Assembly (NCBI GenBank): GCA_030386875.1
Contig: CM059577.1
Span: 24,811,038 to 24,875,037 of the forward strand
Direction of reading: 5' to 3'
From: Morinoia aosen
Taxonomy: Eukaryota; Arthropoda; Malacostraca; Amphipoda; Talitridae
Length of the DNA: 64,000 bases
Shown: in pieces, positions 7,377-62,177 of the stretch
Layout of the letters: each line of letters starts with the position of its first letter
Numbering within the stretch: position 1 is the stretch's first letter
Notes under the pieces: generated by a model
What the model was told of the DNA's origin: nothing
Database searches by the model: none
What the model saw: only the letters and a program-made list of their open reading frames with translations
Position numbers and translations under genes: made by a program

Positions 7377-8043
7377 ATGGAGGGCAGCGCGACATCCAGC
7401 AATGTCGCTTTGACCAACGCTCGGCAAGAAGGCAACAGAAGAAGCACGAAGTGTTGCACCAAATTTGTTTCCATTTTGTGCTCGAACCTCGGGGTTTGTT
7501 TCCTTGTGCTAGTGTACACAGGTCTCGGGGCTGTGTTGTTCACATCCCTGGAGGGTCAGAATCAGTCCCACCACAGAAGTTTGCCAGTCACACACCCCGT
7601 ATCTCCGGAGTCCCCCTCTGCGGACGCCGCAGAAGCCGACGCCGGCAGAAAACCTTCCTCAGTTGACACGGCACCGAAATCAGAAACTCTACGGAAAATG
7701 AACCTCGTATCTGGGGAGCCAACAGACAAAACAGCGGCGGCGGCGGCGGTGATAGGAGGCGAATTTGACACTCAGATGCTGCGACACCAGACGGTGGAGA
7801 GGCTGTGGAGCATAACGGAGTCCCTGAACATCCTGTACCGCGAGAACTGGACGCGTGTCGTGGAGAAGGAGCTCAGGAGGTACAGCGAGGAGCTGCTCAC
7901 CTCCCTCATCAGGCAGCACAACCTGGCGGACGAGGCTGCTGCGTCCAGGAAGCGGCACGAGGACGACGCACAGGAGCAGTTCAAGGAGCAGTGGACTTTT
8001 GCTGGGTCTTTTCTTTACAGTCTCACCGTCATCACCACCATCG
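7377..8043 (+). CDS. K2P channel exon 1
   Basis: Encodes the N-terminus, M1, the outer loop and the start of pore 1, ending inside the glycine codon of TTIG (phase 1). The donor is ATCG|GTGAGT. A GCG run gives five alanines near residue 120. The exon end and donor are the first unit of a 22-bp array. Confidence 0.92.
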
Positions 8044-11000
8044 GTGAGTCGCGTCACCACCATCGGTGAGTTGTGTTACCGCCATCGGTGAGTTGCGTCA
8101 CCACCATCGGTGAGTTGCGTCACCACTATCGATGAGTTGCGTCTCTACATCGGTGAGTTGCGTCACCACCATCGGTGAGTTGAGTCACCACCATCGGTGA
8201 GGTGAGAGGTGATATCACCACTGGTAAGCCATCATGTAATCTACCTGCGGTAGATCAATAGTCAGCGGAGGATTGATGCAATAAATCAATGTTAGTCACT
8301 AAGGCCTGGTTGAGACAGGCGGCAATCAGTAGACGACGGCCTTCAGAGTACATAGATGTGAGATCTTTAGCAGAGTAGACAGGAGCCATCAAGAAGAGTA
8401 GATGGCAGCATCAAGTAGAAGCCAAGTTCGCATCAAGTAAAACACACGCAGGCCACCGAATGAAGCAATGCATAATAATAATTACCGTGGGATAACACCT
8501 CATGTAAGCGCTGACACCCAACTGTGGTGGGTAGTACAATGTAATCATTTGCTGCAAAGCATTCAAATTCTTTTCTGGGCTTAAAAATTGCAATCATTCT
8601 ACTCAATTGCAGTTCCACTACACGTCCAATGCCCTCACACTATTCCACTATATGTAGAATCCCTACACAATACTTCATTAAATACATCGAATCTCCACAC
8701 AATATTCCACCATACGTCGAATACCCACACAATATTCCACCATACGTCGAATACCCACTCGTGATAGACAGGCGTAAATATCCCGTGCGTGTACCAATTT
8801 AAAAGCGTCTAATGCATAAACAAATATTTCAAGGTTTTTCAAGTATTGAACTGATACAGCTACAGGCCACATACGAACAATTCAACTCATCAGTAAATTG
8901 AACATTATCATCATACACGTAGTCCCACTCATGAGAGTGAATACAATGCTCAGGCAAACCGATCATGCATTCAGTGCTCGTTGTTTTATTGTTTTGTGTA
9001 CAGCCCGGTGTTGTGTGCAGCACGGTGTTGTGTACAGGACGGTGTTGTGTACTGCACTGTGCTGTATACAGCACCGTGTTGTGTACAGCACGGTGTTGTG
9101 TACAGCACGGTGTTGTGTGCAGCACAATGGTGTGTACAGCACCGTTTTGTGTAAAGCACGGTGTTGTGCACAGCACGGTGTTGTGTACAGCACCGTGTTT
9201 TGTTGAGCACGGTATTGTGTACAGCGGGGTGTTGTGTACAGCACGGTGTTGTGAGCAGCACAATGTTGTGTACAGCACGGTGTTGTGTACAGCACGGTGT
9301 TGTGAACAGCTCGGTGTTGTGAGCAGCACAATGTTGTGTACAGCACGGTGTTGTGTACAGCACGGTGTTGTGTACTGCACGGTGTTGCTTACAGCAAGGT
9401 AGTTTGAATAAAAAAGCACCATGTACAACAGCGTATTTCACGCACAATCGTTGCTATATATGTACTACGGCAATAGATTGCTTTCACATTGTTCATTTTA
9501 TGGAATTCAAAAAACCTCTGAAAACCTCTGAAATAAACCTCTGAAATTCAGTGCTACATGTCACGCTCTGTTTAAACATTGTAATGCACAGAGTAGATTT
9601 AGAAAAGTTTTACCCTATGTTTTCTGCGAGACGAAAGAGCAGAGATTGACAATTTAGAAGACGCCGCTGATTCATTTCTCCGTAACTGCGGGATGTATTT
9701 ATCAGTGCGAGAAGCTCCTCTGGCGCCATAGAAAACAGTGAAGGCGGCAAAGTGATTGTGTAGAGAAACTCCTACTCAACGGGGCTTGCTCTGCTCTCAA
9801 GTTGAAATCTGAAATATTACTGTAATTTTGAAGTAAAATACGTTTATTGATTAGCGGTGTTTTTTAAATAATTTGTTTAGAAAGTTCGCACTCACGCATC
9901 TTTACGCTGCGCAGGCTACGGAGCTGTGGCGCCGCAGACAGCGCTGGGTAGAGTGGCCACCATCATATATGCTCTGCTGGGCATCCCCCTCATGCTGCTC
10001 TACCTCTCCTCTGTCGGTAGGTGCTGGTAGAGTTACCATGCTGCTCTACCTTTCCTGTGTCGGTAGGTGCTGGTAGAGTTACCATACTGCTCTACCTCTC
10101 TTATGTCGGTAGGTGCAGGTAGAGTAGTTACAATGCTGCTCTACCTTTCCTGTGTCGGTAGGTGCAGGTAGAGTAACAACGATACTTTACATCTGTTTGT
10201 CCTAGGTGCTTCTTGTGAAGTTATTGATGAATGTGCGCAATGTTCATCCCTTAGGTTATAGTATTTACACTGTTTTTTAATGGAGCGAACTTCATATGAT
10301 CTTTACTGTTTTTTTTGAAGGAGAGAACTTTACAGGATCTGCATTGTTTTTACTGGAAATAACTTCATAGAATCTGCGTTGTTTCTTAATGCAACGAATT
10401 TTATAGGTTCTGTATTTTTTTAAAAAAACGAATTCCATACGTTTTACATTGTTTTTTCTTGGAACGAAGTTCATAGAATCTACATTGTTATTTACAGCAA
10501 CGAACTCTAGAGAATCTACGTTTCCTTAAAGTATCGAACTTTATATGCTTAAAAAGTTTAAGAAATTTATTTACCACGAGCGATACAGCAGTAGATTGTA
10601 TCTCATGTCTAGTACAATGGACACATTTGAGTAAAGCTACTTGTGGGCCCGAATAAGCTCAGTGAATTTTAGAGCATCGTATCAACGCTATTTTAAGGCG
10701 TGTAGTTATGTTCAACCAAATTTATATAACCTAGGGGGCATACTAGACTGATCAATAAGTAGGTTCTCTCATGATTCGATGCCTGATTTTTACAAAAATA
10801 GTTAATATGGGCTAGATGGGAACAGTATATTCTATAAAATGATTAGCAGCAGACTTAAGATCTACGTCGTAAATTATGGTAAATTACATTATCAAGATGT
10901 CATGTAGCAAAAGCAAATTTGACTTGAAAACCTTATCTGATTAATATTTCGATAGGAAGAGGGATTCAAGATTCGTTTTGAAAGCTTTGTAAGAACTTTT

Positions 11001-17000: not shown

Positions 17001-19372
17001 TACGTCAGGATATGAACAGAACTTAAACGTACCCTCACCGCTGCTACTGCTTGTTTAGTTCCCGCCATTTTGGAGTAAGGGAAACCTTCGCTAATTTTTT
17101 GAAGAGACAAGGATTGTGTGCTTTTTATGAGGGAATATTACTTTTTTGTTTGATGTTTTATGATTATGGTTAGATGAAATTTATTCATAGTTGCACATGG
17201 TTGGAGTGGGCACTGTTTTGAGTTAGAAATGCATTTTCCCTAACAAATTCAGGCACTATGTTTTAGTGCAAAACAAGGAGCGTCCTCACGGCACAAGACT
17301 CTGTATCTACGTACATTGACACTGCATCTAATATCTACATTTTTTATTAACGAGCTTCATAGGATCTACATTGTTTTTATAAGAACGAACTTTAAGGAAT
17401 CTACGTTGTTTTCAAAGAACTGATATTTTCTCGCTAAGATCATATCCTTCTCGTCATTAGAGAAGAATGGTAACGTTTCGTTGATTGCAGGTGACCTTCT
17501 CTCGCGCGGCCTGAAGTGCGTGTGGGGGCGCGTGTGCCGCTGCCGGTCCTCCAAACCGCGTGCCAAACTCGCCACGCCCCCTCCCCCACTCTCCCTCAGC
17601 CCTCCTTACTCCCACTCACACAAATTCAAGGTATTATCATTTAAAATATGAGTTGAGTTAGTATATAAGCTTATATAAATTAATACGTAATGTATAATTA
17701 TATCCGTCAGTCCTCCGTACTCCCACTCACTCAAATTCAAGGTATTATCAATTACAATTTGAGTTCAGTTAATATATAAGCTTGTTTAAATTAATGCGTA
17801 ATGTATACTTATCTCCGTCTCCTCCGTACTCCCACTCACTCAAATTCAAGGTATTATCAATTATAATTTGAGTTCAGTTAATATACAGGGTGTTTCAGAA
17901 CAAGAGGTTCAAAATTCTGTACTAAGTAGAAAATGGCCATATAAACACTTTTGTTTTGAAGTTTTGAAATTTGCCGGAAATGTTTTTTTTTGAGATATTA
18001 GCTGTTTATTGTTTTAAAGGATGAAACTTAATGACACAATTACTCGCAATATTTATTTTGAATTTACGTTACAAACACTTCTAATATATGAGAGTTTGAA
18101 GTAATAAAATTTAGTTTTAGTAATACAGCATTTGGTAAAAAAGTTTCAGCAAGAGCCTTGTTTATGTTACACCCATTGAATCTGAGAAAGATCCCGTGGC
18201 CAGAATTGCAGTAGCTGCTGGTGAGATTTCTGAAATGCCAGACGTGTTCGCTATATCCGGCAGTCGTTAAGGCTAAGATTTGAAAAGTGCATTGATGTAG
18301 GGAACACCTTTTGAAAAATTTGTGTAAAGTAAATTTGAAATAAATATTGCGAGTAATTGTGTCATTAAATTTCATCCTTGAAAACAATAAACAACTAATA
18401 TCTTAAAAACCCGAATTTTTTTCGGAAAATTTCATTGAAGAATAAGTATTTAGTGACCATTTTCTACTTGGTGGGCAATTTTGTACCTCATGTTCTGAAA
18501 CACCCTTATAGCTAATGAAAATTTCATTTGATTATAGTATTATTAGATTTCATAAAATTTATCTTTCTTCCAAATTTTGTTATACTGAATTTCGTAAAAA
18601 TAATTAAATCAAATTAACTTGATTTAGTCAAAAATAATTATTTACTTTCAGGAGCTAGGTGCATTCAGCTCCGAGTAAACCATTTGCATCAAATGAGATT
18701 CTGACTTCCTTTATTTTCACTAAATATCGGAAAATAATGAAATAGCGTTTATTTTTTTTTAAATTTTTAAGAAACTGTACAGTCAACCATATAATGCTCG
18801 ACCTAGAACAGATTGAATATTCAACTGTGAACTAAATCAAAATTGTCAGACATACTTTGAGGAGGACCGAATCTAAACTTCTGGACTCAATTTTGAATTT
18901 CGACACCGGATCATTTCAAATTTTTGGCTTACCTATCATTTCTTAAACTGATCCGCTCTTCCAGAATGGTGGGTGTCCTCCGGATTGCAATAACCCGGAC
19001 CACGCACCTATCCCTGTCACGTTGTGCATGGTGATCATGGTCATCTACATTTGTGGAGGCGCCGCCATCTTTGCCAGAAGCCAAGGCTGGTCATACCTGG
19101 ATGCTCTGTACTTCTGCTTCGGTTCCCTGACCACCATCGGCTTCGGAGACCTCATGCCCTCCAGAAACCCTCAAGACACAGCCGACGCCCAGCTGCGGCT
19201 CATCGGAGTTTCTTTTTACCTTCTGATAGGCATGGCGTTGATCGCCACTTGTTTCAACCTGATGCAGGAGCAAGTTACGAGTCGAGGCAGTAATTCTGTG
19301 GTCACCAGAAAGCTAAGTGGGCTTGTCACTACCCAAACTCCTCATCACCGCTTCCATTTGGACGACACCTGA
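7377..19372 (+). CDS. Two-pore-domain (K2P/TWIK-like) potassium channel gene, four coding exons
   Basis: Coding exons are 7377-8043, 9915-10016, 17491-17630 and 18965-19372, joining in phase to 438 codons. The product is a plasma-membrane background potassium channel; two subunits normally pair to build one pore. Visible order: cytoplasmic N-terminus, M1 (about residues 30-58, CFLVLVYTGLGAVLF), a long outer loop with a polar helical stretch and an NWT glycosylation site, pore 1 TTIGYG, M2 (ATIIYALLGIPLMLLYLSSVG), a basic inner loop, M3 (MVIMVIYICGGAAIF), pore 2 TTIGFGD, and M4 (GVSFYLLIGMALIATCFNLM). Both selectivity filters are intact. The ATG at 7377 lies in AAAATGG, with an in-frame TAG 12 bases upstream. 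The K2P subfamily is not certain, so no symbol is given. The frame remains open after the TGA (see the extension). Confidence 0.93.
8031..8210 (+). repeat. 22-bp tandem array seeded at the exon 1 donor site
   Basis: Eight units share the core CACCATCGGTGAGTTGCGT with a 22-bp period. The first unit is the real exon 1/intron 1 border. The bases before GGTGAG are the exon bases for Thr-Ile-Gly, so each unit copies exon end, donor and a little intron. Six copies keep GGTGAGT, one has GATGAGT and the last has GGTGAGG. The unit is not a multiple of three and carries TGA inside GTGAGT, so use of a later donor would shift or end the frame except after three units. Confidence 0.93.
8636..8765. repeat. 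Short 30-bp array in K2P intron 1
   Basis: About four copies of a unit with CACACAATATTCCACCATA and CGTCGAATACC, the earlier copies more diverged. Confidence 0.75.
8985..9405. repeat. 17-bp minisatellite in K2P intron 1, about 24 copies
   Basis: The unit is GTTGTGTACAGCACGGT with scattered changes. All open frames in this stretch on both strands (for example 8829-9447) are Cys/Val or Thr/His/Cys repeats caused by the unit and are not genes. Confidence 0.93.
9915..10016 (+). CDS. K2P channel exon 2
   Basis: Starts after CGCAG and ends at TGTCG|GTAGGT, phase 1 to phase 1. It encodes GYGAVAPQTALGR of pore 1 and the whole of M2 to LLYLSSV. Confidence 0.92.
9992..10205 (+). repeat. 46-bp tandem array seeded at the exon 2 donor site
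   Basis: Four clear copies and a worn fifth. Each has about 25 bases of exon 2 end (ATGCTGCTCTACCT...TGTCG) followed by GTAGGTGCTGGTAGAGT from the intron. Periods are 46, 46 and about 49 bp. Four copies keep TGTCG|GTAGGT. The first is the real border. Confidence 0.93.
10262..10550. repeat. Decayed array of about 35-40-bp units in K2P intron 2, left part
   Basis: Seven to eight copies of GAACTTCATAGAATCTAC followed by ATTGTTTTT and a short linker, well diverged. Two more copies lie at 17335-17410 beyond the transposon block. Confidence 0.75.
11308..12001 (-). pseudogene. LINE reverse transcriptase domain, broken
   Basis: Two overlapping open pieces (11576-12001 and 11308-11598) carry HDWFISYLTNRKQYV, then the VPQVSVLG block (usually VPQGSVLG) and VTDDSTLY. 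The normal F/Y-A-D-D catalytic box has become VTDD, so this copy would not polymerise even without its frame breaks. Confidence 0.85.
13023..13620 (-). pseudogene. LINE endonuclease domain, broken
   Basis: The 163-codon open stretch carries DIIICRDFNYDLL (GDFN box with Gly to Arg) and TSDLSDHFPVFL (SDH box). The frame can be followed upstream to about 13.6 kb through RGGGFSTYISKN. Confidence 0.82.
14590..15048 (-). pseudogene. LINE ORF1 fragment
   Basis: An 88-codon open piece (14779-15045) with CKETVCKLLKDEINIKLNN and RLGKKPAPGKDDRR is followed, after a frame change, by VLTACRVIKPKFYVNEYLIP. The pattern fits nucleic-acid-binding ORF1 proteins of arthropod LINEs; assignment is by pattern only. 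Confidence 0.65.
15127..16582. mobile_element. Inverted pair of Penelope-like element 3' ends
   Basis: The minus-strand copy carries the end of the reverse transcriptase (LLHRAYNLSSSYSNFSSELD, NGYPHGLFDRLVRDFL, 15912-16142), TYIGPSSEEMIRYFRKLL in another frame, FFRYKDRLPSELLSNIVYKN, and a GIY-YIG nuclease domain (CGTCQSSYIGSTQK, then SDIRILESLYITKHRPQLN; 15439-15759). Its 3' part from 15594 to 15127 is repeated in inverted orientation at 16115-16582, where the plus strand encodes the same SDIRILESLYITKHRPQLN. The arms are about 467 bp, nearly identical, with about 520 bp between them. Frames are interrupted. It lies in intron 2 of the channel gene, next to the LINE. Confidence 0.88.
16583..17334. 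other. Intron sequence, no recognised feature
   Basis: AT-rich intron 2 sequence right of the Penelope pair. The first 100 bases may still belong to the element. A short complementary pair GGTAC/GTACC at about 16740 is all that stands out. Confidence 0.5.
17335..17410. repeat. Intron 2 decayed array, right part
   Basis: Two copies of the same motif as at 10262-10550 (AGCTTCATAGGATCTACATT and GAACTTTAAGGAATCTACG), each with a GTTTT run. The two parts are separated by 6.8 kb filled largely by transposons. Confidence 0.7.
17491..17630 (+). CDS. K2P channel exon 3
   Basis: Follows TTGATTGCAG and ends TTCAAG|GTATTA, phase 1 to phase 0. It encodes GDLLSRGLKCVWGRVCRCR, the usual K2P sequence just after M2, then a proline/serine-rich inner loop. 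GC content is far above the surroundings. Confidence 0.9.
17601..17886 (+). repeat. About 110-bp tandem array seeded at the exon 3 donor site
   Basis: Three copies start at 17601, 17712 and 17821. Each begins with the last 30 exon bases (CCTCCGTACTCCCACTCAC...AAATTCAAG), then the donor GTATTATCA and about 75 intron bases including ATATAAGCTT. The second copy follows CCGTCAG, a weak acceptor-like end, so it might act as a small alternative exon. Confidence 0.92.
17887..18506. mobile_element. Foldback/MITE-like element with long terminal inverted repeats
   Basis: The left end AGGGTGTTTCAGAAC and right end GTTCTGAAACACCCT are perfect inverted copies, and similarity extends inward for about 190 bp with gaps (TAGAAAATGG / CCATTTTCTA; GATGAAACTTAATGACACAA / its complement near 18350). 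The middle 200 bp show no transposase. Flanks are TATAC and TATAG, so a TA or TATA target duplication is possible. It sits in intron 3, directly after the donor array. The 107-codon minus frame inside is not recognised and is not called. Confidence 0.85.
18965..19372 (+). CDS. K2P channel exon 4
   Basis: Follows CTCTTCCAG in phase 0 and runs to TGA at 19370-19372. It starts NGGCPPDCNNPDHAPIPVTL, then M3, pore helix 2 with LTTIGFGDLMP and M4, and a short cytoplasmic tail ending HHRFHLDDT. M3, pore 2 and M4 in a single exon leave no doubt about the family. Confidence 0.93.
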   Translation, partial: NGGCPPDCNNPDHAPIPVTLCMVIMVIYICGGAAIFARSQGWSYLDALYFCFGSLTTIGFGDLMPSRNPQDTADAQLRLIGVSFYLLIGMALIATCFNLMQEQVTSRGSNSVVTRKLSGLVTTQTPHHRFHLDDT

Positions 19373-33204: not shown

Positions 33205-34334
33205 ACTACACCTTTTTCAATTCAAATTAATCCAAGTGTAGTTCAATTTAATCCAAGTCAAGTTCAATTTAATCTGAGTCAAGTTCAAATTAATCCAAGT
33301 CAAGTTCAAATTAAAAATTAGTTGAGTTAAAAATGACGTAATAATTTGTTAATTTGAGTTTTTTCGTAAAATATGTATCTAGTGGATGTGATGAGCAAAA
33401 CTGGTTTCGAGGATTTATTTACACTCATAGATATTTAATCACGTGAAATTCCACTTTATCACATATATGAAATCAAATACATGCTAGTACAAAATATTAT
33501 CATTGGACGATTTGTAGATATAATCTTTAAAATAAATATACAAGTGCGATTCACTGAGTACTAATGTACGATTCCGTTTGATTACAATTTATAGTTGTAC
33601 ATTACAACCCAGATACATTCCTGCATTAGCAATATAAATGTTGCCATCCATTCTAATTCCGTATTAGTCTTTGTGAAGAAATGTAGGATCCACTTACAAT
33701 ACACAATAATAACACAAGGAACAATGTTTCTAACTTAATGCTGATTTTATTTGTGTGTGTTCACAATTTATTTTTCGAGTATAATACTTTTAAGACTTCA
33801 ATTACTTTTGTAATAATCATTTTATGAATATTTAAGTCTTGAAAGTAGTACTCAGTGAATCGCACTTGTATATTTCTTCTGAAGATTAAACCTACATATC
33901 GTCCAATGATAATATTTTGTACTTGCATGTATTTGATTTCATATATGTGATAAAGTGGAATTTCACGAGTATAAATATCTATGAGTGTAAATAAATCCTC
34001 GAAACCAGTTTTGCTCATCACATCCACTAGATACATATTTTACGAAAAAAACTCAAATTAACAAATTATTACGTCATTTTTAACTCAACTAAGGATTGGA
34101 TTAATTTGATCTTGACTTGGATTAATTTGAACTTGACTCGGATTAATTTGAACTTGACTCTGATTAATTTGAACTTGACTCGGATTAATTTGAACTTGAC
34201 TTGGAATAATTTGAACTTGACTTGGATTAAATTGAACTTGACTCGGATTAAATTGAACTTGACTCGGATTAAATTGAACTTGACTTGGATAAAATTGAAC
34301 TTGACTTAGATTAATTTGAAGTGAAAAAGGTTTA
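33205..34334. repeat. Large inverted repeat with minisatellite tips
   Basis: The left arm 33205-33561 and right arm 33848-34334 are inverted copies around a 286-bp spacer. Matching landmarks include GTATCTAGTGGATGTGATGA near 33373 and its complement near 34020, and AGTGCGATTCACTGAGTAC near 33543 and its complement near 33850. The outer part of each arm is a 21-bp array (AATTAATCCAAGTCAAGTT): about four to five copies at the left and ten to eleven at the right. No transposase is present. Confidence 0.9.
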
Positions 34335-50638: not shown

Positions 50639-50704
50639 TTCAAATTTTCCGAAGCCTTTCACAAGCCATTTTTAAAATCAACGCTGACGTTACGTTGCCC
50701 GGTA

Positions 50705-50805: not shown

Positions 50806-50842
50806 AACCTGACAGATCGACTGACAGGCTGACTGACAGGCT

Positions 50843-50931
50843 TCAGAGGAAGGCCTGTACTTTGCACAGCGAGATTTCGTTCGCACTCACTTCGTTCTCG
50901 AGGTGAATGTAGCGGAAGGGCGGCACCGTCT
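50843..50931 (-). CDS. Gene B last exon
   Basis: Follows CCACTACAG in phase 1 and encodes [20 protein letters not shown], then LCKVQAFL and TGA at 50843-50845. This is the last strand of the galactose-binding fold. Confidence 0.75.
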
Positions 50932-53900
50932 CTGTAGTGGCAGAGTGGAGGACTTGGGGTGATTGTATAACAGTCGTAGTAAACAATCTCGACGACAAAG
51001 TCATTAAAAAGGATTACGTCCAGAGACTGAATATATTTGCAAGAAATAGAAAATATTCATCCTAGTCAGAAACACTTGACACATGCATCAATGCATCAGG
51101 GAGTGTACACTCACTGAACAAGAGACACACACTCCAGACACACCTGGCACACCCCAGACACACCTGACACACCCCAGACACCCCGGACGCACCTCAGACA
51201 CACCCGACACACCCAAGACACACCCGACACCCCCAGACACACACAACACACCCAAGACACACCCGACACACCCACCAGGGACCGGGTAACTAAGCTTCAA
51301 GTTCGACACAGTTGGGGCGGTGCGGGGCGTGATGCCGACGTAGGCGTCGCTCCTGTTGCCGTACTGTCCGGCCTGCGGTGGCAATAATAATAATTGTGGG
51401 GTGGGAGCGGGCAAATTTGGATACTGAGCCGAGGGTGTTGGTGGCAGCTGGCATTTCTATGCCATGTGAACTCGTGACATTCAAGTTCCGAATGCAAATT
51501 ATGACGTCGCTGGTGTCTAGAATTTTTCTAACCAAAATGAAAAGTAGTCCAAATATTTTTCAGTCGTTAATGATCTGTTTCAACAGATTTGACTTCTTAT
51601 GAAAAATATTTTTGAATTTTCAGTTTATTTGGAGTGTGGCCATGTACGCGGAGAGCGCAAAGCGACACCAGCGACGACACAATTCAGACTTTTTACATGA
51701 CAGTCCACCTTGTGTGTACCTAGTAGTAAATCTGTGCAGTTAATTGAATTCTGCACTTCGTAAATTTGTATACGGGGCAGAGTTTAACCGTTTCATTATA
51801 ATCATGAAATCTCCGGCCCACATCGAGCGGCGCAAGTCCATGAAATCAACGGAAGTGAAACTGACGGTTAAAAATAAGTACCTCAATACCGGATACTGAT
51901 AATATAACTACTGATTACCGGTTACAAAAGTGAGTGCTAAATATCGGATATGATAGTGAGTGCTAAATACCGAGTCACGTCGACCTTCTTTGATACAGGT
52001 TAGTGCCGGCCTTCTTTGATACCGAATACCTACTAATGCACCATTACTACACAGTGCTCACATATTTTAAACTAATTAATTTTGGTATCATATGTATAAA
52101 TCTCCATCACTTCCTCCTACCGAAATGGCCTCGTTCGAAGCTAGAAAGTCATGAAATTTTCTGATTGATTTAAAATGGACGGACAATTTCTACACATTCG
52201 CTTCATGACGCATGCAAATGACGCATCTCCCGACGTGCGCCACGTAAGTCACTCATGTGACTTGCTGTTTACAAAATGACACAACATGCGACACAACATG
52301 CCGAACTGACTAACATGCCCACATGACCAACACACGACACAACATGCCCACTTGCCCACATGAACAACACACGACACAACATGCCCACTTGCCCACATGA
52401 ACAACACACGACACAACATGCCCACTTGCCCACATGAACAACACACGACACAACATGCCCGCTTGCCCACATGACCAACACACGACACAGCATGCCCACT
52501 TGCCCACATGACCAACACACGACACAACATGCTCACTTGCCCACATGACCAACACATGACACAACATGCTCACTTGCCCACATGACCATCACACGACACA
52601 ACATGCCCACTTGCCCACATGACCAACACACGACACAACATGCCCACTTGCCCACATGACCAACACACGACACAACATGCCCACTTGCCCACATGACCAA
52701 CACACGACACAACATGCCCACTTGCCCACATGAACAACATGCCCAACATACCCACACATACCCGGATTGTGATGTTAACAAAGTAGGGCAGCGCTGTCTC
52801 CGCTGGGCCGGTGAGGGCAATGAGGGTGACCGGCCAGGCCCTCTCTAGGTCCACCTTTGCCCAGTTTTGGGCGCTACTAGTCGCCATGCAGTCCCAGCGG
52901 TTGGGCCAGCACCTCGAGCCGTACGTCTGCAACCCCGACGTGTGGGAACATGAGACAGCTGTAGGTGGTATGGGTGTAGCTGTGGGTGGTGGGGGTGTGG
53001 CTGTGGGTTGTGTGGGTGTGGCTGTGGGTTGTGTAGGTGTAGGTGTGGCTGTGGGTTGTGTGGGTGTGGCTGTGGGTTGTGTGGGTGTGGCTGTGGGTTG
53101 TGTGGGTGTGGCTGTGGGCTGTGTGGGTGTGGCTGTGGGTTGTGTGGGTGTGGCTGTGGGTTGTGTGGGTGCAGCTTTAAGTGGTGTGGGTGCAGCTGTG
53201 GGTGGTGGAGGTGTAGCTATGGGTGGTGTGAGTGTAGCTGTTGGTGGAGTGGGTGTAGCTGTGGGTGGTGTGGGTGTAGCTCTCGGTGGTGTAGGTGCAG
53301 CTGTGGGTGGTGTGGGTGTAGCTGTGGGTGGTGTGGGTGTAGCTGTCGGTGGTGTGGGTGTAGCTGTGGGTGGTGGGGGCGTGGCTGTGGGTTGTGTGGG
53401 TGTAGTTATGGGTGGTATGGGTGTAGCTGTGGGTGGTGTGAGTGTAGCTGTCGGTGGTGTGGGTGGAGCTGTGGGTGGTGTGGGTGTAGCTGTGGGTGAT
53501 GTGAGTGTAGCTGTCGGTGGTGTGGGTGTAGCTGTGGGTGGTGTGGGTGTAGATGGGGGTGGTGGGGGTGTGGCTGTGGGTTGTATGGGTGTAGCTGTGG
53601 GTGGTGTGGGTTTAGTTGCGGGTGGTATGAGTGTAGCTGTCGGTGGTGTCGGTGGTGCTGTGGGTGGTGTGGGTGTAGCTGTGGGTGGCATGGGTGTAGT
53701 TGTGGGTGGTGGGGGTGTGGCTGTGGGTTGTGTGGGTGTAGTTGTGGGTGGTGTGGGTGTAGTTGTGGGTGGTGGGGGTTTAGCTGTGGGTTGTGTGGGT
53801 GTAGCTGTGGGTGGTGTGGGCTTAGTTGCGGGTGGTGTGAGTGTAGCTGTGGGTGGTGTGAGTGTAGCTGTGGGTGGTGTGGGTGTAGCTGTGGGTGGTG

Positions 53901-56900
53901 GGGGCGTGGCTGTGGGTTGTGTGGGTGTAGTTATGGGTGGTATGGGTGTAGCTGTGGGTGGTGTGAGTGTAGCTGTCGGTGGTGTGGGTGGAGCTGTGGG
54001 TGGTGTGGGTGTAGCTGTGGGTGATGTGAGTGTAGCTGTCGGTGGTGTGGGTGTAGCTGTGGGTGGTGTGGGTGTAGATGGGGGTGGTGGGGGTGTGGCT
54101 GTGGGTTGTATGGGTGTAGCTGTGGGTGGTGTGGGTTTAGTTGCGGGTGGTATGAGTGTAGCTGTCGGTGGTGTGGGTGGTGCTGTGGGTGGTGTGGGTG
54201 TAGCTGTGGGTGGCATGGGTGTAGTTGTGGGTGGTGGGGGTGTGGCTGTGGGTTGTGTGGGTGTAGTTGTGGGTGGTGTGGGTGTAGTTGTGGGTGGTGG
54301 GGGTTTGGCTGTGGGTTGTGTGGGTGTAGCTGTGGGTGGTGTGGGCTTAGTTGCGGGTGGTGTGAGTGTAGCTGTGGGTGGTGTGAGTGTAGCTGTGGGT
54401 GGTGTGGGTGTAGCTGTGGTTGGTGTGGGTGCAGCTGTGGGTGGTGTGGGTGTAGCTGCGGGTGGTGTGGGTGTAGCTGTTGGTGGTGTGGGTGTAGCTG
54501 TGGGTGGTGTGGGTGTAGCTGTCGGTAGTGTGGGTGCAGCTGTGGGTAGTGTGGGTGTAGCTCTGTGTGGTTGGGGCGTGGCTGTGGGTTGTGTGGGTGT
54601 AGGTGTGGGTGGTGTGGGTGAAGCTGTGGGTAGTGTAAGTGTAGCTGTCGGTGGTGTGGGTGGTGCTGTAGGTGGTGTGGGTGTAGCTGTGGGTGGTGTA
54701 AGTGTAGCTGTCGGAAATGTGGGTGTTGCTGTGGGTGGTGTGGGTGTAGTTTTTGGTGGCGTGGGTGTAGTTGTGGGTGGTGAGGGTTTAGTTGTGGGTG
54801 GTGTGGGTGTAGCTGTCGGTGGTGTGGGTGGTGCTGTGGGTGGTGTGGGTGTGGCTGGGGGTGGTGTGGGTGTAGTTGTGGGTGGTGGAGGCGCGGCTGT
54901 GGGTTGTGTGGGTGTTGTTGTGGGTGGTGTGGGTTTAGTTGTGGGTGGTGTGGGTGTAGCTGTTGGTGGTGTGGGTGGTGCTGTGGGTGGTGTGGGTGTG
55001 GCTGTGGGTGGTGTGGGTGTAGTTGTGGGAGGTTGGGGTGTGGCTGTTGGTTGTGTGGGTGCAGCTGTGGATGGTGTGGGTGCAGCTGTTGGTTGTGTGG
55101 GTGCAGCTGTGGGTGGTTTGGGTGCAGCTGTGGGTGGTTTGGGTTTAGTTGTGGATGGTGTGGGTGTAGCTGTCGGTGGTGTGCGTGTAGCTGTGGGTGG
55201 TGTTGGTGTAGTTGTGGGTGGTGTGGCTTTAGTTGTGGGTGGTGGGGGTGTAGCTGTCAGTGGTGTGGGTGTAGTTGTGGGTGGAGTGGGTATAGCTATG
55301 GGTGGTGGAGGTGTAGCTGTGGGTGGTGTGGATGTAGCTGTGGGTGGTGTGGGTGTAGCTGTGGGTGGTGTGGGTGTAGCTGTGGTTAGTGTGGGTGTAG
55401 CTGGGGGGGTGTGGGTGTAGCTGTGGGTAGTGTGGGTTTAGTTGTGGGTGGTGTGGGTGCAGCTGTCGGTGGTGTGGGTGAAGTTGTAAAGAGTGTGTGT
55501 GCAGCTGTAAGGAGTGTGGGCGCAGCTGTAAGGAGTGTGGGTGCAGCTGTAAGGAGTGTGTGTGCAGCTGTAAGGAGTGTGGGTGCAGTTATGAGTGTGG
55601 ATGCAGCTGCAAGGATTGTGAATGCAGCTGTAAGGAGAGTGGGTGCAGCTGTAAGAAGTGTGGGTGCAGCTGTAAGGAGTGTGGGTGCAGCTGTAAGGAG
55701 TGCGAGTGCAGCTGTAAGGAGTGTGGGTGCAGCTATGAGTGTGGATGCAGCTGAAAGGATTGTGAATGCAGCTGTAAGGAGTGTGGGTGCAGCTGTAAGG
55801 AGTGTGGGTGCAGCTGTAAGGAGTGTGGGTGCAGCTATAAGGAGTGCGGGTGCAGCTGTAAGGAGTGTGGGTGCAGCTGTAAGGAGTGTGGGTGCAGCTA
55901 TAAGGAGTGCGGGTGCAGCTGTAAGGAGTGTGGGTGCAGCTATAAGGAGTGCGGGTGCAGCTGTAAGGAGTGTGGGTGAAGCTGTAAGGAGTGTGGGTGC
56001 AGCTGTAAGGGATGTGGGTGCAGCTGTATGTGGTTTAGATGCAGTTGTAAGGGGTGAGGGTGCAGCTGTAATGAGTGTGGGTGCAGCTGTAGGTGATGTA
56101 ACTACAATACGACTAAAACTATTACTCAACCAATCGAATATAGTAGTATTACAATAATATTATAGTTAACTGCAACTGTCAAAATATGACCCTATAAAAA
56201 TAGACCATGTAAGCTGAAAAAATACTCCTGGAATGCCTTCCACCACCAGTTGGGACATGTAGAATTCCCCAGAACCAACTGGGACATATAGGACTCCCTC
56301 CCCACCGGCTGGTGCATATGGCACTCCCTCACCACCAGCTGATACATATAGGCCTCCCTCACCACCAGCTGGTACATATAGGACTCCCTCACCACCAGAT
56401 GGTACATATAGGACTCTTCCACCACCAGATGATACATATATGACTCCCTCCCCACCGGCTGGTACATATGGTACTCCCTCACCACCAGCTGGTACATATA
56501 GGACTCCCTCACCACCAGCTGGTACATATAGGACTCCCTCACCACCAGCTGGTACATATAGGACTCCCCCACCACCAGATGGTACATATAGGACTCCTCC
56601 ACCACCAGATGGTACATATAGGAGTCCCTCACCACAAGTTGGTACATATAGGACTCCCTCACCACCAACTTGTACATATAGGACTCCTCCACCACCAGAT
56701 GGTACATATAGGACTCCCTCACCACCAGATGGTACATATAGGACTCCCTCACCACCACATGGTTTATATAGGACTCCCTCACCACCAGCTGGTACATATA
56801 GGACTTCCTCACCACCAGATGGTTCATATAGGACTCCCTCACCACCAGCTGGTATATATAGGACTCCCTCACCACCAGATGGTACATATAGGACTCCTCC

Positions 56901-59900
56901 ACCACCAGATGATACATATATGACTCCCTACCCACCGGCTGGTACATATGGTACTCCCTCACCACCAGCTGGTACATATAGGACTCCCTCACCACCAGCT
57001 GGTACATATAGGACTCCCTCACCACCAGATGGTACATATAGGACTCCCTCCCCACCAGATGGTACATATAGGACTCCTCCACCAGCAGATGGTACTTATA
57101 GGACTCCTCCACCACCAGATATGGTACATATAGGACCCCCTCACCACCAGATGGTACATATAGGACTCCTCCACCACCAGATGGTACATATAGGACTCCT
57201 CCACCACCAGATGGTACATATAGGACTTCCTCACCACCAGCTGGTACATATAGGACTCCTCCACCACCATATGGTACATATAGGACTCCCTCACCACCAG
57301 CTGGTACATATAGGACTCCTCCACCACCAGATGGTACATACAGGACTCCCTCACCACCAGATGGTACATATAGGACTCCCTCACCACCAACTGGTACATA
57401 TAGGACTCCTCCACCACCAGCTGGTACATATAGGACTCATACACTACCAGATGGTACATATAGGACTCCCTCACCACCAACTGGTACATATAGGACTCCT
57501 CCACCACCAGCTGGTACATATGGGACTCCTCCACCACCAGATGGTACATATAGGACTCCCTCACCACCAGATGGTACATATAGAACTCCCTCACCACCAG
57601 CTGGTACATATAGGACTCCCTCACCACCAGCTGGTACATATAGGACACCTCCACCACCAGATGGTACATATAGGACTCCCTCACCACCAGATGGTACATA
57701 TAGGACTCCCTCACCACCAGTTGGTACATATAGGACTCCCTCACCACCATCTGGTACATATAGGACTCCCTCACCACCAACTGGTACATATAGGACTCCC
57801 TCACCACCAATTTGTACATATAGGACTCCTCCACCACCAGATGGTACATATAGGACTCCCTTACCACCATCTGGTACATATAGGACTCCCTCACCACCAT
57901 CTGGTACATATAGGACTCCCTCACCACCAGACGGTACATATAGGACTCCCTCACCACCAGTTAGTACATATAGGACTCCCTCACCACCAATTTGTACATA
58001 TAGGACTCCTCCACCACCAGATGGTACATATAGAACTCCCTCACCACCATCTGGTACATATAGGACTCCCTCACCACCAAATGGTACATAAAGGACTCCT
58101 CCACCACCAGATGGTACATATAGGACTTCCTCATTACCAGATGGTACATATAGGACTCCCTCACCACCAGTTGGTACATATAGGACTCCCTTACCACCAA
58201 CTTGTACATATAAGACTCCTCCACCACCAGGTGGTACATATAGGACTCTCTCACCACCAGATGGTACATATAGGACTCCCTCACCACCAGATGGTACATA
58301 TAAGACTCTCTCACCACCAGATGGTACATATAGGACTCCCTCACCACCAGCTGGGACATATGGGACTCCCTCACCACCAGATGGTACATATAGGACTCCC
58401 TCACCACCAGATAGTACATATAGGACCCCCTCACCACCAGCTGGTACAAATAGGACTCCTTCACTACCAGATGGTACATATAGGACTCCCTCACCACCAG
58501 CTGGTACATATAGGACTCCCTCACCACCAAATGGTACATAAAGGACTCCTCCACCACCAGATGGTACATATAGGACTTCCTCATTACCAGATGGTACATA
58601 TAGGACTCCCTCACCACCAGTTGGTACATATAGGACTCCCTTACCACCAACTTGTACATATAGGACTCCTCCACCACCAGGTGGTACATATAGGACTCCC
58701 TCACCACCAGATGGTACATATAAGACTCTCTCACCACCAGATGGTACATATAGGACTCCCTCACCACCAGCTGGGACATATGGGACTCCCTCACCACCAG
58801 ATGGTACATATAGGACTCCCTCACCACCAGATAGTACATATAGGACCCCCTCACCACCAGCTGGTACAAATAGGACTCCTTCACTACCAGATGGTACATA
58901 TAGGACTCCCTCACCACCAGCTGATACATATAGGACTCCCTCACCACCAGACGGTACATATAGAACTCCCTCACCACCAGTTAGTACATATAGGACTCCC
59001 TCACCACCAATTTGTACATATAGGACTCCTCCACCACCAGATGGTACATATAGAACTCCCTCACCACCATCTGGTACATATAGGACTCCCTTACCACCAA
59101 CTGGTACATATAGGACTCCCTCACCACCATCTGGTACATATAGGACTCCCTCACCACCAGACGGTACATATAGAACTCCCTCACCACCAGTTAGTACATA
59201 TAGGACTCCCTCACCACCAATTTGTACATATAGGACTCCTCCACCACCAGATGGTACATATAGAACTCCCTCACCACCATCTGGTACATATAGGACTCCC
59301 TTACCACCAACTGGTACATATAGGACTCCTCCACCACCAGATGGTACATATAGGACTCCCTCATTACCAGATGGTACATATAGGACTCCCTCACCACCAG
59401 TTGGTACATATAGGACTCCCTCACCACCAACTTGTACATATAGGACTCCTCCACCACCAGATGGTACATATAGGACTCTCTCACCACCAGATGGTACATA
59501 TAGGACTCCCTCACCACCAGATGGTACATATAAGACTCTCTCACCACCAGATGGTACATATAGGACTCCCTCACCACCAGCTGGGACATATGGGACTCCC
59601 TCACCACCAGATGGTACATATAGGACTCCCTCACCACCAGATAGTACATATAGGACCCCCTCACCACCAGCTGGTACAAATAGGACTCCTTCACTACCAG
59701 ATGGTACATATAGGACTCCCTCATCACCAGCTGGTACATATAGGACTCCCTCACCACCAGATGGTACATATAGGACCCCCTCACCACCAGATGGTACATA
59801 TAAGACTGCCTCACCACCAGCCGGGCTTGCAATACTCACCAGCACCTCTGCGTCCCTGAAGATCCAGTATTTTCCCCCAGCAGAAACATTTTTCCCCAGC

Positions 59901-62177
59901 GCCACGTCGGTGGGGGATGGGGGGCTGCGCACCTTAGGCCAGTACGAGGGGGTGAGTGGGGGGGGAGAAGTTACCCAGGTGGTAGCCCTCATCCAAGGAG
60001 AACGACCAGAGTTTGCAAACTGAACCTGTGAATAATTTGAAGTCAAGTCAACATTTGAAATCACTTCTTGTAAGCACCATAAAAGTTCGAATCATTCAAA
60101 GTCTGACCTGTGCGGTCAAAAAATATGCTTTTGCCGTTGTTTTTTGTAAAGTGTGTGATAATGATCATTTTGCACGCACCCATAAAATTTTGTGAAATCA
60201 ATAAATAACTCAAAAAGGGGCCCAAAGCATGAATTTAGCCATTGGCCTTTCTTTTTGAAGGCCTTCAATATTGACATTCAAAGGTGAACTTTCATAGTGT
60301 GAAAAATAAACTTTGATTTTCAATTTCTCCTATACACTAGTCGAAATTTATTTGAACTCTTAGATTTTGTACAATGGCGTGAAACAAGCTTTGATGGATT
60401 TGATGTCTGGTTTTCACTCTCTTTCGAATCTGTTTCCATAATCGGTTTCTTGTATTCATTATTTGATTCTTTGATCCCACATTCTACAGACCTAAAGCCG
60501 GTAGAACGCTGTGCATATTCTATGAAAACCAGATGCACAAAAATTATAAAATTGATGATCGAGTCTTTAAGAACACTGTCAAAATTTTTGTTTAGTCAAC
60601 AGATCCGGATATGTCAATGAAAGTCTTAGTGCATTATAAATAACAGGAAAATCAGTGACCTCCCAGTGAAAATTAATGTATCTACATCCAGGGTGAATAA
60701 GCGAGATAGAGCCAGTGTAATATACCAGATTAAATGTGACAGAAAAAAGGTAAGTCTTCTAATAAATGTGTTATATTGGCTTGAGTAGAATGACCCTGAC
60801 GCAAAGATTAACCGCTCATGAATACGAGTACCAAGGTTCTACTTTCAATCATTTCCACATTGACCATAGCTGCCAGCATTCAAATGAAGATCTTAACTCT
60901 AACACAAAAATTTATATAATGTCGTTAAAAAGAGCATATTCAAACAATAGAAGCATTACACTTCCATAAACTTGAACCTGCTCATAATGATAACGCAAAT
61001 GACTTTTTTTGCTTTAAAATTATTTACTAGTACTGCAGCTTAGAAGTCTGGTGCGACCGCTCGTTCGTTCATTTCTCCCCTATCGTTTGTACCATTAACA
61101 TCTATGGTTGTGCAATACTGTTACTTAATCTCGTGTATGCATATTCTTGTCGAACAAACGTTGTCTCTGGTCATTTATATATTTTGTGCTGTGATTTTCA
61201 AATTTCTCACTGTGTCTGATATAGCTCAAGTATTAGACTTGTATTTAATTAATGGACTGAACAGTTTTTCTGTTTATTTTCAGTCTGATGATGATGTTTG
61301 GGCGTCAAAACGTTTCTTTTTATATACATTACAGAGGTATTACATTTTACATATTGACAGTGTTCCAACCAAAAATTTTGAGTGAACTTCTGCTTAATTT
61401 AACACGTGATAAACTTGAACTGTTCAATAAAGTTCAAAAATTGGAAAAGAAATTACTAACAAGTTTTTCCCAGCGCTTTTGTACTGCGCAAGAAAATTGT
61501 TTCAGCTAAAATGACACATGACAAGAACGTCGTAACTTGATGATTATTTTTCAAATACTTTACCACAACTGCACCCGTTTTTAATTGAGAAAATGTTTTC
61601 CTTATGTGCAAATATTTGCGCTTATATTCAAATAATTAAATAAATGTATGTCAAAGATTGGTGTATTACTATGCATATACGAAGCAGGTTGTAGAGTATT
61701 CCATACTTGACCATTCACACTAACACACCTACATACATTCTTGTATTATTAAGCACATTCGTACAAACTCCTTTCAAACTGACCGTTCAAGCCCACGCAC
61801 ATTCGCACAACCACACGCAATTGCACGCGCACCCGAACGCTTCACGTTCGCACCACGTTTAAACGCACGAACGTTCGCATGCACACGCGGAAGTTCGGGC
61901 ACCTAAAGAGGTGGAAAGTTCTTGAAGGATGAAAAGCACCTGAAAAGATAAAGAGCATCTGTAGAGGTGAAGAGTACCTACAGAGGTGATGAGTACCTGC
62001 AGAGGTGGAGTACCTGCAGAGGTGATGAGTACCTGCAGAGGTGAAGAAGGTGCAGTTGGAGAGCTGCCGGCAGAGGAGGAAGCAGTGGATGCGGCCCGAC
62101 ACGCCCCACTGCAGGTTCACCTCCGTCACCGTCGGCACGCACAGCCCCTCGTAGTGAGGCTCCATCGCCAGCTCCAC
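50843..62177 (-). CDS. Gene B: PAN plus fucolectin/F5-8C-type galactose-binding protein, 5' end not in window
   Basis: Minus-strand exons: 62033-62177, 59975-60025, 59840-59924, 52762-52926, 51276-51372 and 50843-50931. The first two give a PAN-like module ([54 protein letters not shown]). The others give about 140 residues of a galactose-binding fold: [67 protein letters not shown] and [20 protein letters not shown], ending QAFL and TGA. The opening NVALGK, the WxKVDL core and the closing LCxVxxF are marks of fucolectin-type (FTP/F5-8C) domains. Phases agree at all joins except between the second and third exons, where one base is in conflict. Extracellular sugar recognition is inferred from the domains. 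Confidence 0.72.
51100..51275 (-). repeat. G/T-rich array (about 20-bp units) seeded at the donor of the 51.3-kb exon
   Basis: On the minus strand the border CCCTG|GTGGGTGTGTCGG runs directly into repeats such as CTGGGGTGTGTCAGGTGTGT and TTGGGTGTGTCGGGTGTGT, about nine units, reaching 51100. The unit resembles the donor and its first intron bases. Confidence 0.8.
51276..51372 (-). CDS. Gene B exon, galactose-binding domain part 3
   Basis: Acceptor TTGCCACCGCAG|GCCGGA, phase 0; donor CCTG|GTGGGT, phase 1. It encodes [19 protein letters not shown] and [13 protein letters not shown]. The joins to the exons on both sides keep the frame. Confidence 0.75.
51373..52274. other. Gene B intron, nothing recognised apart from the array at its start
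   Basis: AT-rich; contains a short loosely repeated stretch (GTGCTAAATACCG-like) near 51.9-52.0 kb. Confidence 0.5.
52275..52761 (-). repeat. 37-bp minisatellite seeded at the donor of the 52.8-kb exon, about 13 copies
   Basis: On the minus strand the donor ATCCGG|GTATGTGTGG leads into GTATGTTGGGCATGTTGTTC and then regular 37-bp units (TGGGCAAGTGGGCATGTTGT, then CGTGTGTTGGTCATG). The first units are shorter variants that start at the donor itself. Open frames over it ([13 protein letters not shown] repeats) are by-products. Confidence 0.88.
52762..52926 (-). CDS. Gene B exon, galactose-binding domain part 2
   Basis: 165 bases, phase 0 to 0 if the acceptor is GTTGCAG at 52927. It encodes [36 protein letters not shown] and [19 protein letters not shown]. 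The frame stays open upstream into the array (SCSHTSGLQ), so an acceptor further out, CCTACAG at 52959, is possible but would be out of phase with the previous exon. Confidence 0.75.
52962..56105. repeat. 21-bp minisatellite, about 150 copies, next to the acceptor of the 52.8-kb exon
   Basis: The plus-strand unit is GTGGGTGTAGCTGTGGGTGG plus T. On the gene's strand it reads CCACACCACCCACAGCTAC: a C-rich pyrimidine tract with a CACAG acceptor-like end in every unit. Left units (52.98-53.17 kb) carry GTGTGGCTGTGGGTTGT. From 55.48 kb the unit changes to GTGGGTGCAGCTGTAAGGAG plus T with the same period. Two copies of a 525-bp block (25 units) lie at about 53380-53904 and 53905-54429. No stop codons occur in most frames, hence the long spurious open frames on both strands. 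Confidence 0.96.
56225..59833 (-). repeat. 30-bp minisatellite, about 120 copies, running from the donor of the 59.8-kb exon
   Basis: The plus-strand unit is GGTACATATAGGACTCCCTC followed by ACCACCAGAT or a variant. On the gene's strand the donor GTGCTG|GTGAGTATTGC is followed within about 15 bases by units containing CATCTGGTG|GTGAGGGAGTC, close to the donor itself. Blocks of ten or more units are repeated almost unchanged (for example near 58.0, 58.5 and 59.2 kb), showing recent larger duplications. Open frames of 300-1139 codons on both strands arise from this unit. Confidence 0.96.
59840..59924 (-). CDS. Gene B exon, galactose-binding domain part 1
   Basis: Donor GTGCTG|GTGAGT in phase 0. 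It encodes [19 protein letters not shown] and RDAEVL, the normal opening of the fold. The acceptor GTGCGCAG at 59925 leaves one base, while the preceding exon would need two; a one-base error in the C-runs CCCCCC/CCCCC at the exon start would solve this. Confidence 0.65.
59975..60025 (-). CDS. Gene B exon, end of the PAN module
   Basis: 51 bases between TTATTCACAG and CTGG|GTAACT, phase 1 to 1. It encodes [16 protein letters not shown], a standard close of a PAN/apple module after the NCTFF exon, with which it is in phase. The intron to the next exon would be only 50 bases. Confidence 0.65.
60026..60639. other. Gene B intron, nothing recognised
   Basis: AT-rich; no further exon or element supported. 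Confidence 0.5.
60640..61340 (+). mobile_element. Penelope-like element remnant with GIY-YIG domain
   Basis: The plus strand encodes [15 protein letters not shown], then in another frame [20 protein letters not shown] and [10 protein letters not shown], the GIY-YIG nuclease of Penelope-like elements. A worn IAEAL-like end follows in a third frame, then a tail with GATGATGATGTTTGGGCGTC. Frames are broken. The tail is related to that at 39.5-39.8 kb. It lies in gene B's intron, opposite in strand. Confidence 0.78.
61740..61870. repeat. CGCAC-rich low-complexity stretch
   Basis: Irregular runs of CGCACATTCGCAC-like words, just before the 19-bp array. Confidence 0.6.
61905..62050 (-). repeat. 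19-bp tandem array seeded at the donor of the PAN exon
   Basis: On the minus strand the exon end ACCTCTGCAG|GTACTC is followed by units of GTACTCATCACCTCTGCAG (19 bp, one of 16-17 bp), about four clear and four worn. Every clear unit holds a pyrimidine stretch, CAG and GT, so each joint could serve as donor or acceptor. The first joint is the real donor. Confidence 0.92.
62033..62177 (-). CDS. Gene B exon, first part of the PAN module
   Basis: Acceptor CTTGCCCGGCAG|GTGGAG in phase 0, donor GCAG|GTACTC in phase 1. It encodes [39 protein letters not shown] and [11 protein letters not shown] content is high against the introns. Earlier exons (signal peptide) were not found up to 64 kb. Confidence 0.72.

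What the first reader, a model, noticed from the sequence alone, without database searches (positions are those of the whole stretch)
8031..62050. Many minisatellites in this window start exactly at splice sites
At least eight donor sites from three genes on both strands (8044, 10017, 17631, 43307, 51275, 52761, 59839, 62032) are the first unit of, or run directly into, a tandem array going into the intron. In the clearest cases the unit contains the last 10-30 exon bases plus the GT donor. One acceptor (37554) is repeated the same way. Only about 12 internal donors are visible, so this is far beyond chance. Either splice borders are hot spots for tandem duplication here, or extra donor copies are kept because they help or buffer splicing. 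I know of no named system that matches.
Basis: partly seen in the sequence, partly recalled or inferred. Interest (0 to 1): 0.93.

Follow-up and report, generated by a model that had tools for sequence, protein, structure and literature searches.

The report
Minisatellites anchored at splice borders
In this animal genome, short DNA repeats often begin right at the edge of an exon, and some are copies of the exon's end with its splice signal, a structure known so far from a few lancelet genes.

Summary
Of the eight donors named, five (8044, 10017, 17631, 43307, 62032) lie in arrays whose unit contains the exon end plus GT; at the other three (51275, 52761, 59839) an array starts 2-23 bp inside the intron without exon sequence. 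Acceptor 37554 is confirmed. On my annotation, 5 of 12 donors recur in the intron against 1.5% of window positions, including 3 of 3 in the K2P channel gene. The pattern continues outside the window and in 60 kinase exons of the same genome: 10 of the 18 donor-side arrays that start after the match begin within 100 bp (P = 4e-4), and 4 of 60 donors are copied against 0.7% background (P = 7e-4). A kinesin sample shows no clear excess. 'No named system' is wrong: amphioxus genes have such 'mirages' (PMC3087553). Most likely, border-spanning tandem duplications survive because the first copy keeps the exon intact, then expand as ordinary minisatellites. Two results leave room for a splicing role: extra donors mismatch about half as often as the unit (P = 0.003), and donor-side arrays without exon sequence are strongly G/T-skewed on the transcript strand.

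The parts
7377..8043 (+). Gene A exon 1, two-pore (K2P) potassium channel; ends ...SLTVITTI(G)
   Evidence: joined exons: Pfam Ion_trans_2 E 9.5e-37; K2P structures E 3.4e-26
8032..8201 (+). Array at donor 8043/8044: 22-bp unit TCACCACCATCG|GTGAGTTGCG, 12 exon bases plus donor, 7.8 copies
9915..10016 (+). Gene A exon 2 (YGAVAPQT...LMLLYLSSVG)
9991..10174 (+). Array at donor 10016/10017: 46-bp unit with 26 exon bases plus GTAGGTGC, 3.9 copies
17491..17630 (+). Gene A exon 3
17592..17885 (+). Array at donor 17630/17631: 111-bp unit with 39 exon bases plus GTATTATC, 2.7 copies
18965..19372 (+). Gene A exon 4, second pore; acceptor placed by eye
62033..62177 (-). Gene B exon B1 (PAN-like)
   Evidence: open frame with AG/GT borders; paralogous gene C outside the window, joined exons E 5e-18
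61951..62047 (-). Array at donor B1: 19-bp unit CACCTCTGCAG|GTACTCAT, 5.2 copies
59840..59932 (-). Gene B exon B2 ([11 protein letters not shown]...)
56241..59820 (-). 119-copy, 30-bp array starting at base 20 of the intron after donor B2; no exon sequence; donor-like GTGGTGAG in units
52957..56091 (-). 21-bp arrays filling most of the rest of that intron, ending about 30 bp before acceptor B3; units contain CCACCCACAG
52762..52926 (-). Gene B exon B3
52316..52739 (-). 37-bp array starting at base 23 of the intron after donor B3
51276..51372 (-). Gene B exon B4
   Evidence: phase-compatible with B3 and B5
51127..51274 (-). 9/20-bp GGTGTGTC array starting at donor B4 (GTGGGTGTGTCG)
50859..50931 (-). 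Gene B exon B5, donor uncertain; nearest array 63 bp away
43308..43385 (-). Gene B exon B6
43128..43326 (-). Array at donor B6: 63-bp unit with about 19 exon bases plus GTAAGT, 3.2 copies
37339..37553 (-). Gene B exon B8 (C-type-lectin-like region); donor 37339 has no array
   Evidence: lectin similarity of the joined region weak, E 0.0034
37547..37686 (-). Array at acceptor 37553: 64-bp unit with polypyrimidine tract, CAG and about 9 exon bases, 2.2 copies

Best explanation
These are 'mirage'-type minisatellites. (1) A short tandem duplication happens to straddle an exon-intron border; about 20-110 bp are copied, including the last exon bases and the donor, or less often the acceptor. (2) The copy next to the exon keeps the normal exon end, so the normal mRNA can still be made, while the other copies become intron; a similar duplication wholly inside the exon would damage the protein and is lost. 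(3) The array then expands and shrinks like any variable-number minisatellite. Other border arrays lost, or never had, the exon part and start a few bases inside the intron. (4) Borders are enriched because exons here are GC-rich islands in AT-rich introns, and GC-rich exon ends carry more arrays. Shown: exon-to-intron origin of units, border enrichment in the kinase set, copy-number change between duplicate loci, the GC association. Inferred: the duplication mechanism, the selective filter, and normal splicing.
For: Units copy conserved coding sequence, so the exon is the source: the K2P filter ...ITTIG, kinase segments IIYRDLK (L094), CIFAEM (L070) and EVIR (L099) (motif names recalled), and VCGCCEVCRP of an IGFBP-like exon just outside the window. 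Enrichment in 60 kinase exons: 14 of 22 donor-side arrays start between 60 bp before and 100 bp after the match end; counting only starts after the match end, 10 of 18 fall within 100 of 550 bp (P = 4e-4). On the acceptor side 6 of 17 end within 50 bp (P = 0.003; 0.03 under the loosest interval). 0 of 40 arrays lie wholly inside a match. By the formal test 4 of 60 kinase donors are first units against 12 of 1,800 flank positions (P = 7e-4). Exon-end GC is 0.597 with and 0.529 without a donor-side array (14 vs 46, P = 5e-4). Duplicate loci differ in copy number: 15.5 vs 25.5 (L100/L101) and 11.4 vs about 20 (L047/L102). No exon-containing unit was shared between loci among 135 units compared. 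The corresponding donor in paralogous genes B and C carries unlike units, 19 and 26 bp.
Against: GC content alone does not explain the G/T skew of donor-side arrays without exon sequence (GC skew +0.42 in 17 arrays against +0.06 in 40 array-free donor flanks, P = 3.6e-4), nor the lower mismatch rate of the donor 9-mer within arrays (0.54 of the unit mean, P = 0.003). A neutral filter does not by itself predict arrays that start close to, but not across, the donor, and these are the majority in the kinase set. Fourteen apparently unspliced kinase reading frames show no array within 100 bp after the stop codon, which hints that a splice border rather than a coding edge matters (P = 0.06), although most of those frames are also less GC-rich. 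The kinesin set shows no clear excess.
Confidence: 0.58

Rival explanations
1. Selection keeps the extra donors: repeated 5' splice sites and G/U-rich units act as back-up U1 docking sites or intronic splicing enhancers, so border arrays are retained more often than others.
For: In 11 exon-containing arrays (one locus counted in two copies) the donor 9-mer mismatches at 0.54 of the unit mean, rotation P = 0.0026 (0.0061 after leaving out the duplicate and two arrays of one or two copies); donor GT 0.24 against 0.74 for 38 other GTs. In 17 donor-side arrays without exon sequence the best donor-like site is stronger on the sense than the antisense strand (P = 8e-4) and the sense strand is G/T-rich.
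Against: Copies within an array are not independent, I chose the consensus units, and single arrays vary (rank fractions 0.03 to 0.77). 46 of 60 kinase donors do without a nearby array. 8 of 11 exon-containing unit lengths are not multiples of three (22, 46, 19, 26, 53, 62, 31, 38 against 111, 63, 42), so use of a later donor would usually shift the frame.
Confidence: 0.2
2. Old-intron model: ancestral introns were short and partly made of arrays; later transposon insertions in the middle lengthened them, leaving arrays near both ends. Border enrichment then reflects the age of edge sequence, not a border process.
For: In K2P intron 2 a similar 35-36-bp unit occurs about 240 bp after the donor (10258-10519) and about 70 bp before the acceptor (17349-17420), with transposon-like frames between.
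Against: It does not predict units that include exon sequence, nor the drop after 100 bp in the kinase set (14 arrays up to 100 bp, 8 in the next 450), nor the G/T skew that distal arrays lack.
Confidence: 0.12
3. Transcription-linked fragility: G-rich coding strands just after 5' splice sites form R-loops or other structures, and repair of the resulting breaks makes tandem duplications.
For: Sense-strand GC skew +0.42 and TA skew +0.42 in 17 donor-side arrays against +0.06 and +0.18 in array-free flanks and -0.02 and +0.20 in 19 distal arrays; acceptor-side arrays do not share it.
Against: Exon-containing arrays have no GC skew on average (+0.05, though TA skew is +0.25). The donor motif is itself G/T-rich, so skew may follow from the seed. 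No break or R-loop data.
Confidence: 0.15
4. Dispersed satellites or introner-like elements inserted at splice sites.
For: None found; inserted elements can also abut splice sites.
Against: Exon-containing units are local copies of the exon end. Of 135 units compared, the shared ones were AT-rich units, the K2P intron-2 unit and one 117-119-bp two-copy unit 10 kb apart. A genome-wide check of the 30-bp unit did not complete.
Confidence: 0.03
5. Chance or mis-called exons.
For: Gene B is supported only by frames, phases and a diverged paralog, not by curated domain hits.
Against: The K2P gene, the kinase exons and the IGFBP-like exon are solid, and K2P shows the pattern at 3 of 3 donors.
Confidence: 0.02

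Closest known systems
'Mirages' of amphioxus (Adh3; globin genes BflGb6, BflGb9; passages of PMC3087553 seen; the original Adh3 paper is cited there and not held)
   Same: Minisatellite-like tandem duplications spanning an exon-intron border, at both 5' and 3' borders, many units with GT/AG signals, length differing between haplotypes, unit lengths 10-72 and 150-160 bp.
   Different: Reported there for a few genes of lancelets. Here it is found in several gene families of a 2-Gb genome of another, unnamed animal, beside a larger class of donor-side, G/T-skewed arrays without exon sequence.
IFI6 (6-16) minisatellite of humans (Turri 1995, not held; seen as a passage and reference in PMC4526556)
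   Same: A minisatellite whose repeat units provide several splice donors at one exon end.
   Different: A single gene whose downstream donors are reported as used; here use is unknown and several genes are involved.
Intron gain by tandem duplication of proto-splice sites (discussed in PMC3087553)
   Same: Tandem copies carrying splice signals at exon borders.
   Different: That model makes new introns inside coding sequence; here existing introns are extended at their edges.

Membership tests
Mirage minisatellites | Repeat unit spans an exon-intron border | tested here: met
   5 of 12 donors in the window; 4 of 60 kinase donors (L070, L082, L094, L099) and L027 by eye; exons of genes C and D outside the window
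Mirage minisatellites | Occurs at both 5' and 3' borders | tested here: met
   Acceptor 37553, weaker score 27: one clear border-spanning case; other acceptor-side arrays mostly only adjoin
Mirage minisatellites | Units carry GT or AG splice signals | tested here: met
Mirage minisatellites | Length differs between alleles or haplotypes | tested here: inconclusive
   Duplicate copies on one contig differ (15.5 vs 25.5 units); whether they are alleles or segmental duplicates is unknown
Mirage minisatellites | Normal splicing is not disturbed | not testable with these tools
   No RNA data
Mirage minisatellites | Somatic length instability (reported at Adh3) | not testable with these tools
   Needs DNA from several tissues
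IFI6-type minisatellite with several used donors | Downstream repeat donors are used in mRNA | not testable with these tools
   No RNA data
Introner-like inserted elements | Same sequence family at many loci | tested here: not met
   No exon-containing unit shared among 135 units from held loci; the genome-wide check did not complete

The most novel reading that the evidence does not exclude
In this genome 5' splice sites are systematic birth sites of minisatellites through a transcription- or splicing-linked process, and the amplified donors are kept as redundant U1 docking sites or splicing enhancers, so a sizeable share of introns begin with a variable array of spare splice signals.
Probability: 0.2. 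Interest if true: 0.85.

Novelty: new member of a known kind. Interest (0 to 1): 0.58.

Why it matters
Mirages were described in a few amphioxus genes and their origin was called unclear (PMC3087553). A genome where they recur in unrelated gene families gives enough cases to test where minisatellites are born, whether a splice site or only a GC-rich exon edge seeds them, and whether spare donors matter for splicing. Such arrays could feed intron lengthening, alternative donors and new exons, and they are a trap for gene annotation: at one locus (L101) an exon end with its donor recurs about two dozen times in the intron.

Tried and rejected
Chance was rejected by the position test and the kinase set. 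Dispersed elements were disfavoured. Pfam and PDB searches gave no firm domain for gene B; a paralog outside the window supports it instead. The kinesin set (20 stretches, 4 of which I read as gene ends) gave arrays of score 50 or more within 100 bp at 3 (L110, L112 and, after a stop codon, L121) and 4 further arrays between 100 and 360 bp (L106, L109, L112, L119): no clear excess. The binomial values for kinase edges (3e-6 and 7e-4) used too narrow an interval for arrays that overlap the match; one search replaces them. One of the 14 kinase arrays (L067) is only at the score threshold. In one search I left out L050 (its donor is unsure) and L027; the skew values were typed, rounded, into. In one search the strand of L032 was flipped by my stop-codon check, as its match holds one stop; read in the listed strand its array starts 20 bp after the match end. 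One search also printed two translations in wrong frames, which I did not use.
Full report
WHAT WAS CHECKED. I fixed exon ends without using the repeats. Gene A, on the + strand, is a two-pore potassium channel: its joined exons match Ion_trans_2 at E = 9.5e-37 and solved K2P channels at E = 3.4e-26. Its internal donors lie after 8043, 10016 and 17630. Gene B, on the - strand, is probably a secreted lectin-like protein, with exons called from open frames, AG/GT borders and matching phases (B7 and B9 by eye). Curated domains do not support it firmly (weak C-type lectin similarity, E = 0.0034), but joined exons of a paralogous gene C, about 14 kb outside the window, align with it at E = 5e-18, 32% identity.

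THE OBSERVATION. Tandem Repeats Finder lists 51 rows. At 51276, 52762 and 59840 the array begins at intron base 2, 23 and 20 and has no exon sequence. The acceptor at 37553 is copied with about 9 exon bases. In a formal test the last 25 exon bases plus 9 intron bases realign into the next 200 bp of intron with score 37 or more at 5 of 12 donors; the other 7 reach at most 17. Of 12 acceptors one reaches 27 and the rest at most 17 (one, A4, was set 7 bp off). Among 11,528 window positions on both strands 1.5% look like a first unit, so 5 of 12 has binomial P = 6e-7. All 3 donors of the K2P gene are positive. Four donors in the window have no array within 50 bp.

DIRECTION. The exon is the source. 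The copied letters encode conserved residues: the channel filter ITTIG, the LMLLYLSSVG segment after it, and elsewhere kinase and IGFBP-like motifs.

OUTSIDE THE WINDOW. Gene C has an exon near 77.8-77.9 kb whose donor is in an array (26-bp unit containing the exon end), with another array ending about 6 bp before its acceptor, and an exon near 82.98-83.14 kb with arrays on both sides. A third exon of gene C (about 79.4-79.6 kb) and the exon near 64.6 kb have none close by; the second K2P exon to the left has none either. Gene D, an IGFBP-like gene (E = 2.1e-6), has a 53-bp unit of 47 exon bases plus GTGAGT in about 13 copies; no exon-copying array is listed at its next exon. Genes B and C carry unlike units at the corresponding donor, which suggests repeated births at the same border, although old arrays diverged beyond recognition cannot be excluded.

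GENOME TEST. The window lies in a genome of 1.99 Gb in 29 contigs. Kinase domains gave 135 matches; 30 were cut as loci. Of the other 105 I took 60, mostly with short open frames and chosen without looking at repeats, and fetched 600 bp on each side. With TRF score at least 50 and period at least 8 there are 40 arrays; none lies wholly inside a match. On the donor side 14 of 22 arrays start between 60 bp before and 100 bp after the match end. Counting only starts after the match end, 10 of 18 fall within the first 100 of 550 bp (P = 4e-4); under a uniform 610-bp interval 14 of 22 gives P = 3e-4. On the acceptor side 6 of 17 arrays that end before the match end within 50 bp of it (P = 0.003); 7 of 18 under the wider interval gives P = 0.03. 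No two of the 60 loci shared 200 bp of similar DNA. By the formal donor test 4 of 60 (L070, L082, L094, L099) are first units, against 12 of 1,800 flank positions (P = 7e-4); so border-spanning units are the minority and border-adjoining arrays the majority. L027, from the other 30 loci, is a further border-spanning case by eye. A second set, 20 kinesin stretches, gave arrays within 100 bp at 2 of about 16 internal donors and one gene end, with 4 more arrays further out: no clear excess. So the excess is real in the larger set, but its strength varies between families or samples, and it is lower than in the window.

WHAT GOES WITH IT. Exon ends with a donor-side array are more GC-rich, 0.597 against 0.529 (14 and 46, P = 5e-4). 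Fourteen apparently unspliced kinase reading frames, two pairs of them near-duplicates, have no array within 100 bp after the stop codon (P = 0.06 against 14 of 60), but these are mostly less GC-rich. Duplicate copies of a locus on one contig differ in copy number. Within 11 exon-containing arrays, one locus counted in two copies, the donor 9-mer has 0.54 of the mean mismatch rate of the unit, P = 0.0026 by rotating the window within each unit; the donor GT has 0.24 against 0.74 for 38 other GTs. Copies are not independent, so I treat this as suggestive. Seventeen donor-side arrays without exon sequence (three from the window) have mean sense-strand GC skew +0.42 and TA skew +0.42; 40 array-free donor flanks have +0.06 and +0.18, 19 distal arrays -0.02 and +0.20. 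Among the seventeen is L082, which the later test counts as a first unit. Ten exon-containing arrays show no GC skew (+0.05) but TA skew +0.25; 12 acceptor-side arrays are not significantly skewed.

HOW IT MOST LIKELY WORKS. A tandem duplication straddling a border leaves one good exon end and one spare copy in the intron, so it escapes the selection that removes duplications inside exons; it then behaves as a minisatellite. GC-rich exon edges in AT-rich introns would supply more seeds. What this does not explain well are the G/T skew, the slower donors and the arrays that adjoin but do not cross the border. These fit either a role of the spare donors in splicing or a transcription-linked fragility after 5' splice sites. 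An age effect may also contribute: in K2P intron 2 a similar unit occurs near both ends with transposon-like frames between, as if a short, array-rich intron had been split by insertions.

WHAT IS KNOWN. Passages of PMC3087553 describe 'mirages' in amphioxus: tandem repeats over exon-intron borders at either end of an exon, with length differences between haplotypes and, at Adh3, somatic instability; RT-PCR suggested that regular splicing is not disturbed, and the mechanism was called unclear. The human IFI6 gene has a minisatellite with several donors (passage and reference in PMC4526556). Nine library searches listed no genome-wide account of mirages; the library lacks most subscription papers. 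I file this as a new member of the mirage kind in a different animal, with wider occurrence.

LIMITS. There is no RNA evidence, no named species and no relative. 'Probably an arthropod' rests on the recalled look of the transposons only. The genome sample is 60 plus 20 exons from two families, and the exon ends there are approximate because they come from profile matches.

Noticed in passing
window 1-1734: A 25-bp array of 61 copies (65 with the left flank) adjoins a minus-strand transposase-like fragment (1567-1734). By eye its unit resembles the next stretch of such a transposase in another frame, so this array may have been born inside transposon coding DNA, away from any splice border.
   Followed up: no
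window 10258-10519 and 17349-17420: A similar 35-36-bp unit lies near both ends of K2P intron 2, with transposon-like frames between, as if one array-rich intron had been split by insertions.
   Followed up: partly
window 33217-33314 and 34096-34320: The same 21-bp unit occurs on opposite strands about 800 bp apart, by eye within a larger inverted repeat.
   Followed up: no
window about 15442-16494: Inverted copies of a reading frame that looks like the endonuclease part of a Penelope-like element (recalled, not searched).
   Followed up: no
L009, window coordinates -13071 to -12661: A second K2P-like exon about 20 kb to the left of gene A, on the same strand, without border arrays.
   Followed up: partly
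G000 contigs C5, C12, C14, C17: Kinase matches often come in pairs on one contig; five pairs compared, 0.5 to 2.7 Mb apart, are about 90 to 100% identical: alleles left in the assembly or segmental duplications.
   Followed up: partly
G000 C24:71002215-71002990: Three tandem copies of kinesin profile positions 53-109 about 300 bp apart on one strand, two of them listed with a 260-aa open frame.
   Followed up: no
window 52927-59839: A 6.9-kb intron of gene B is nearly all tandem repeat: donor-like units next to the donor and CCACCCACAG units next to the acceptor.
   Followed up: partly
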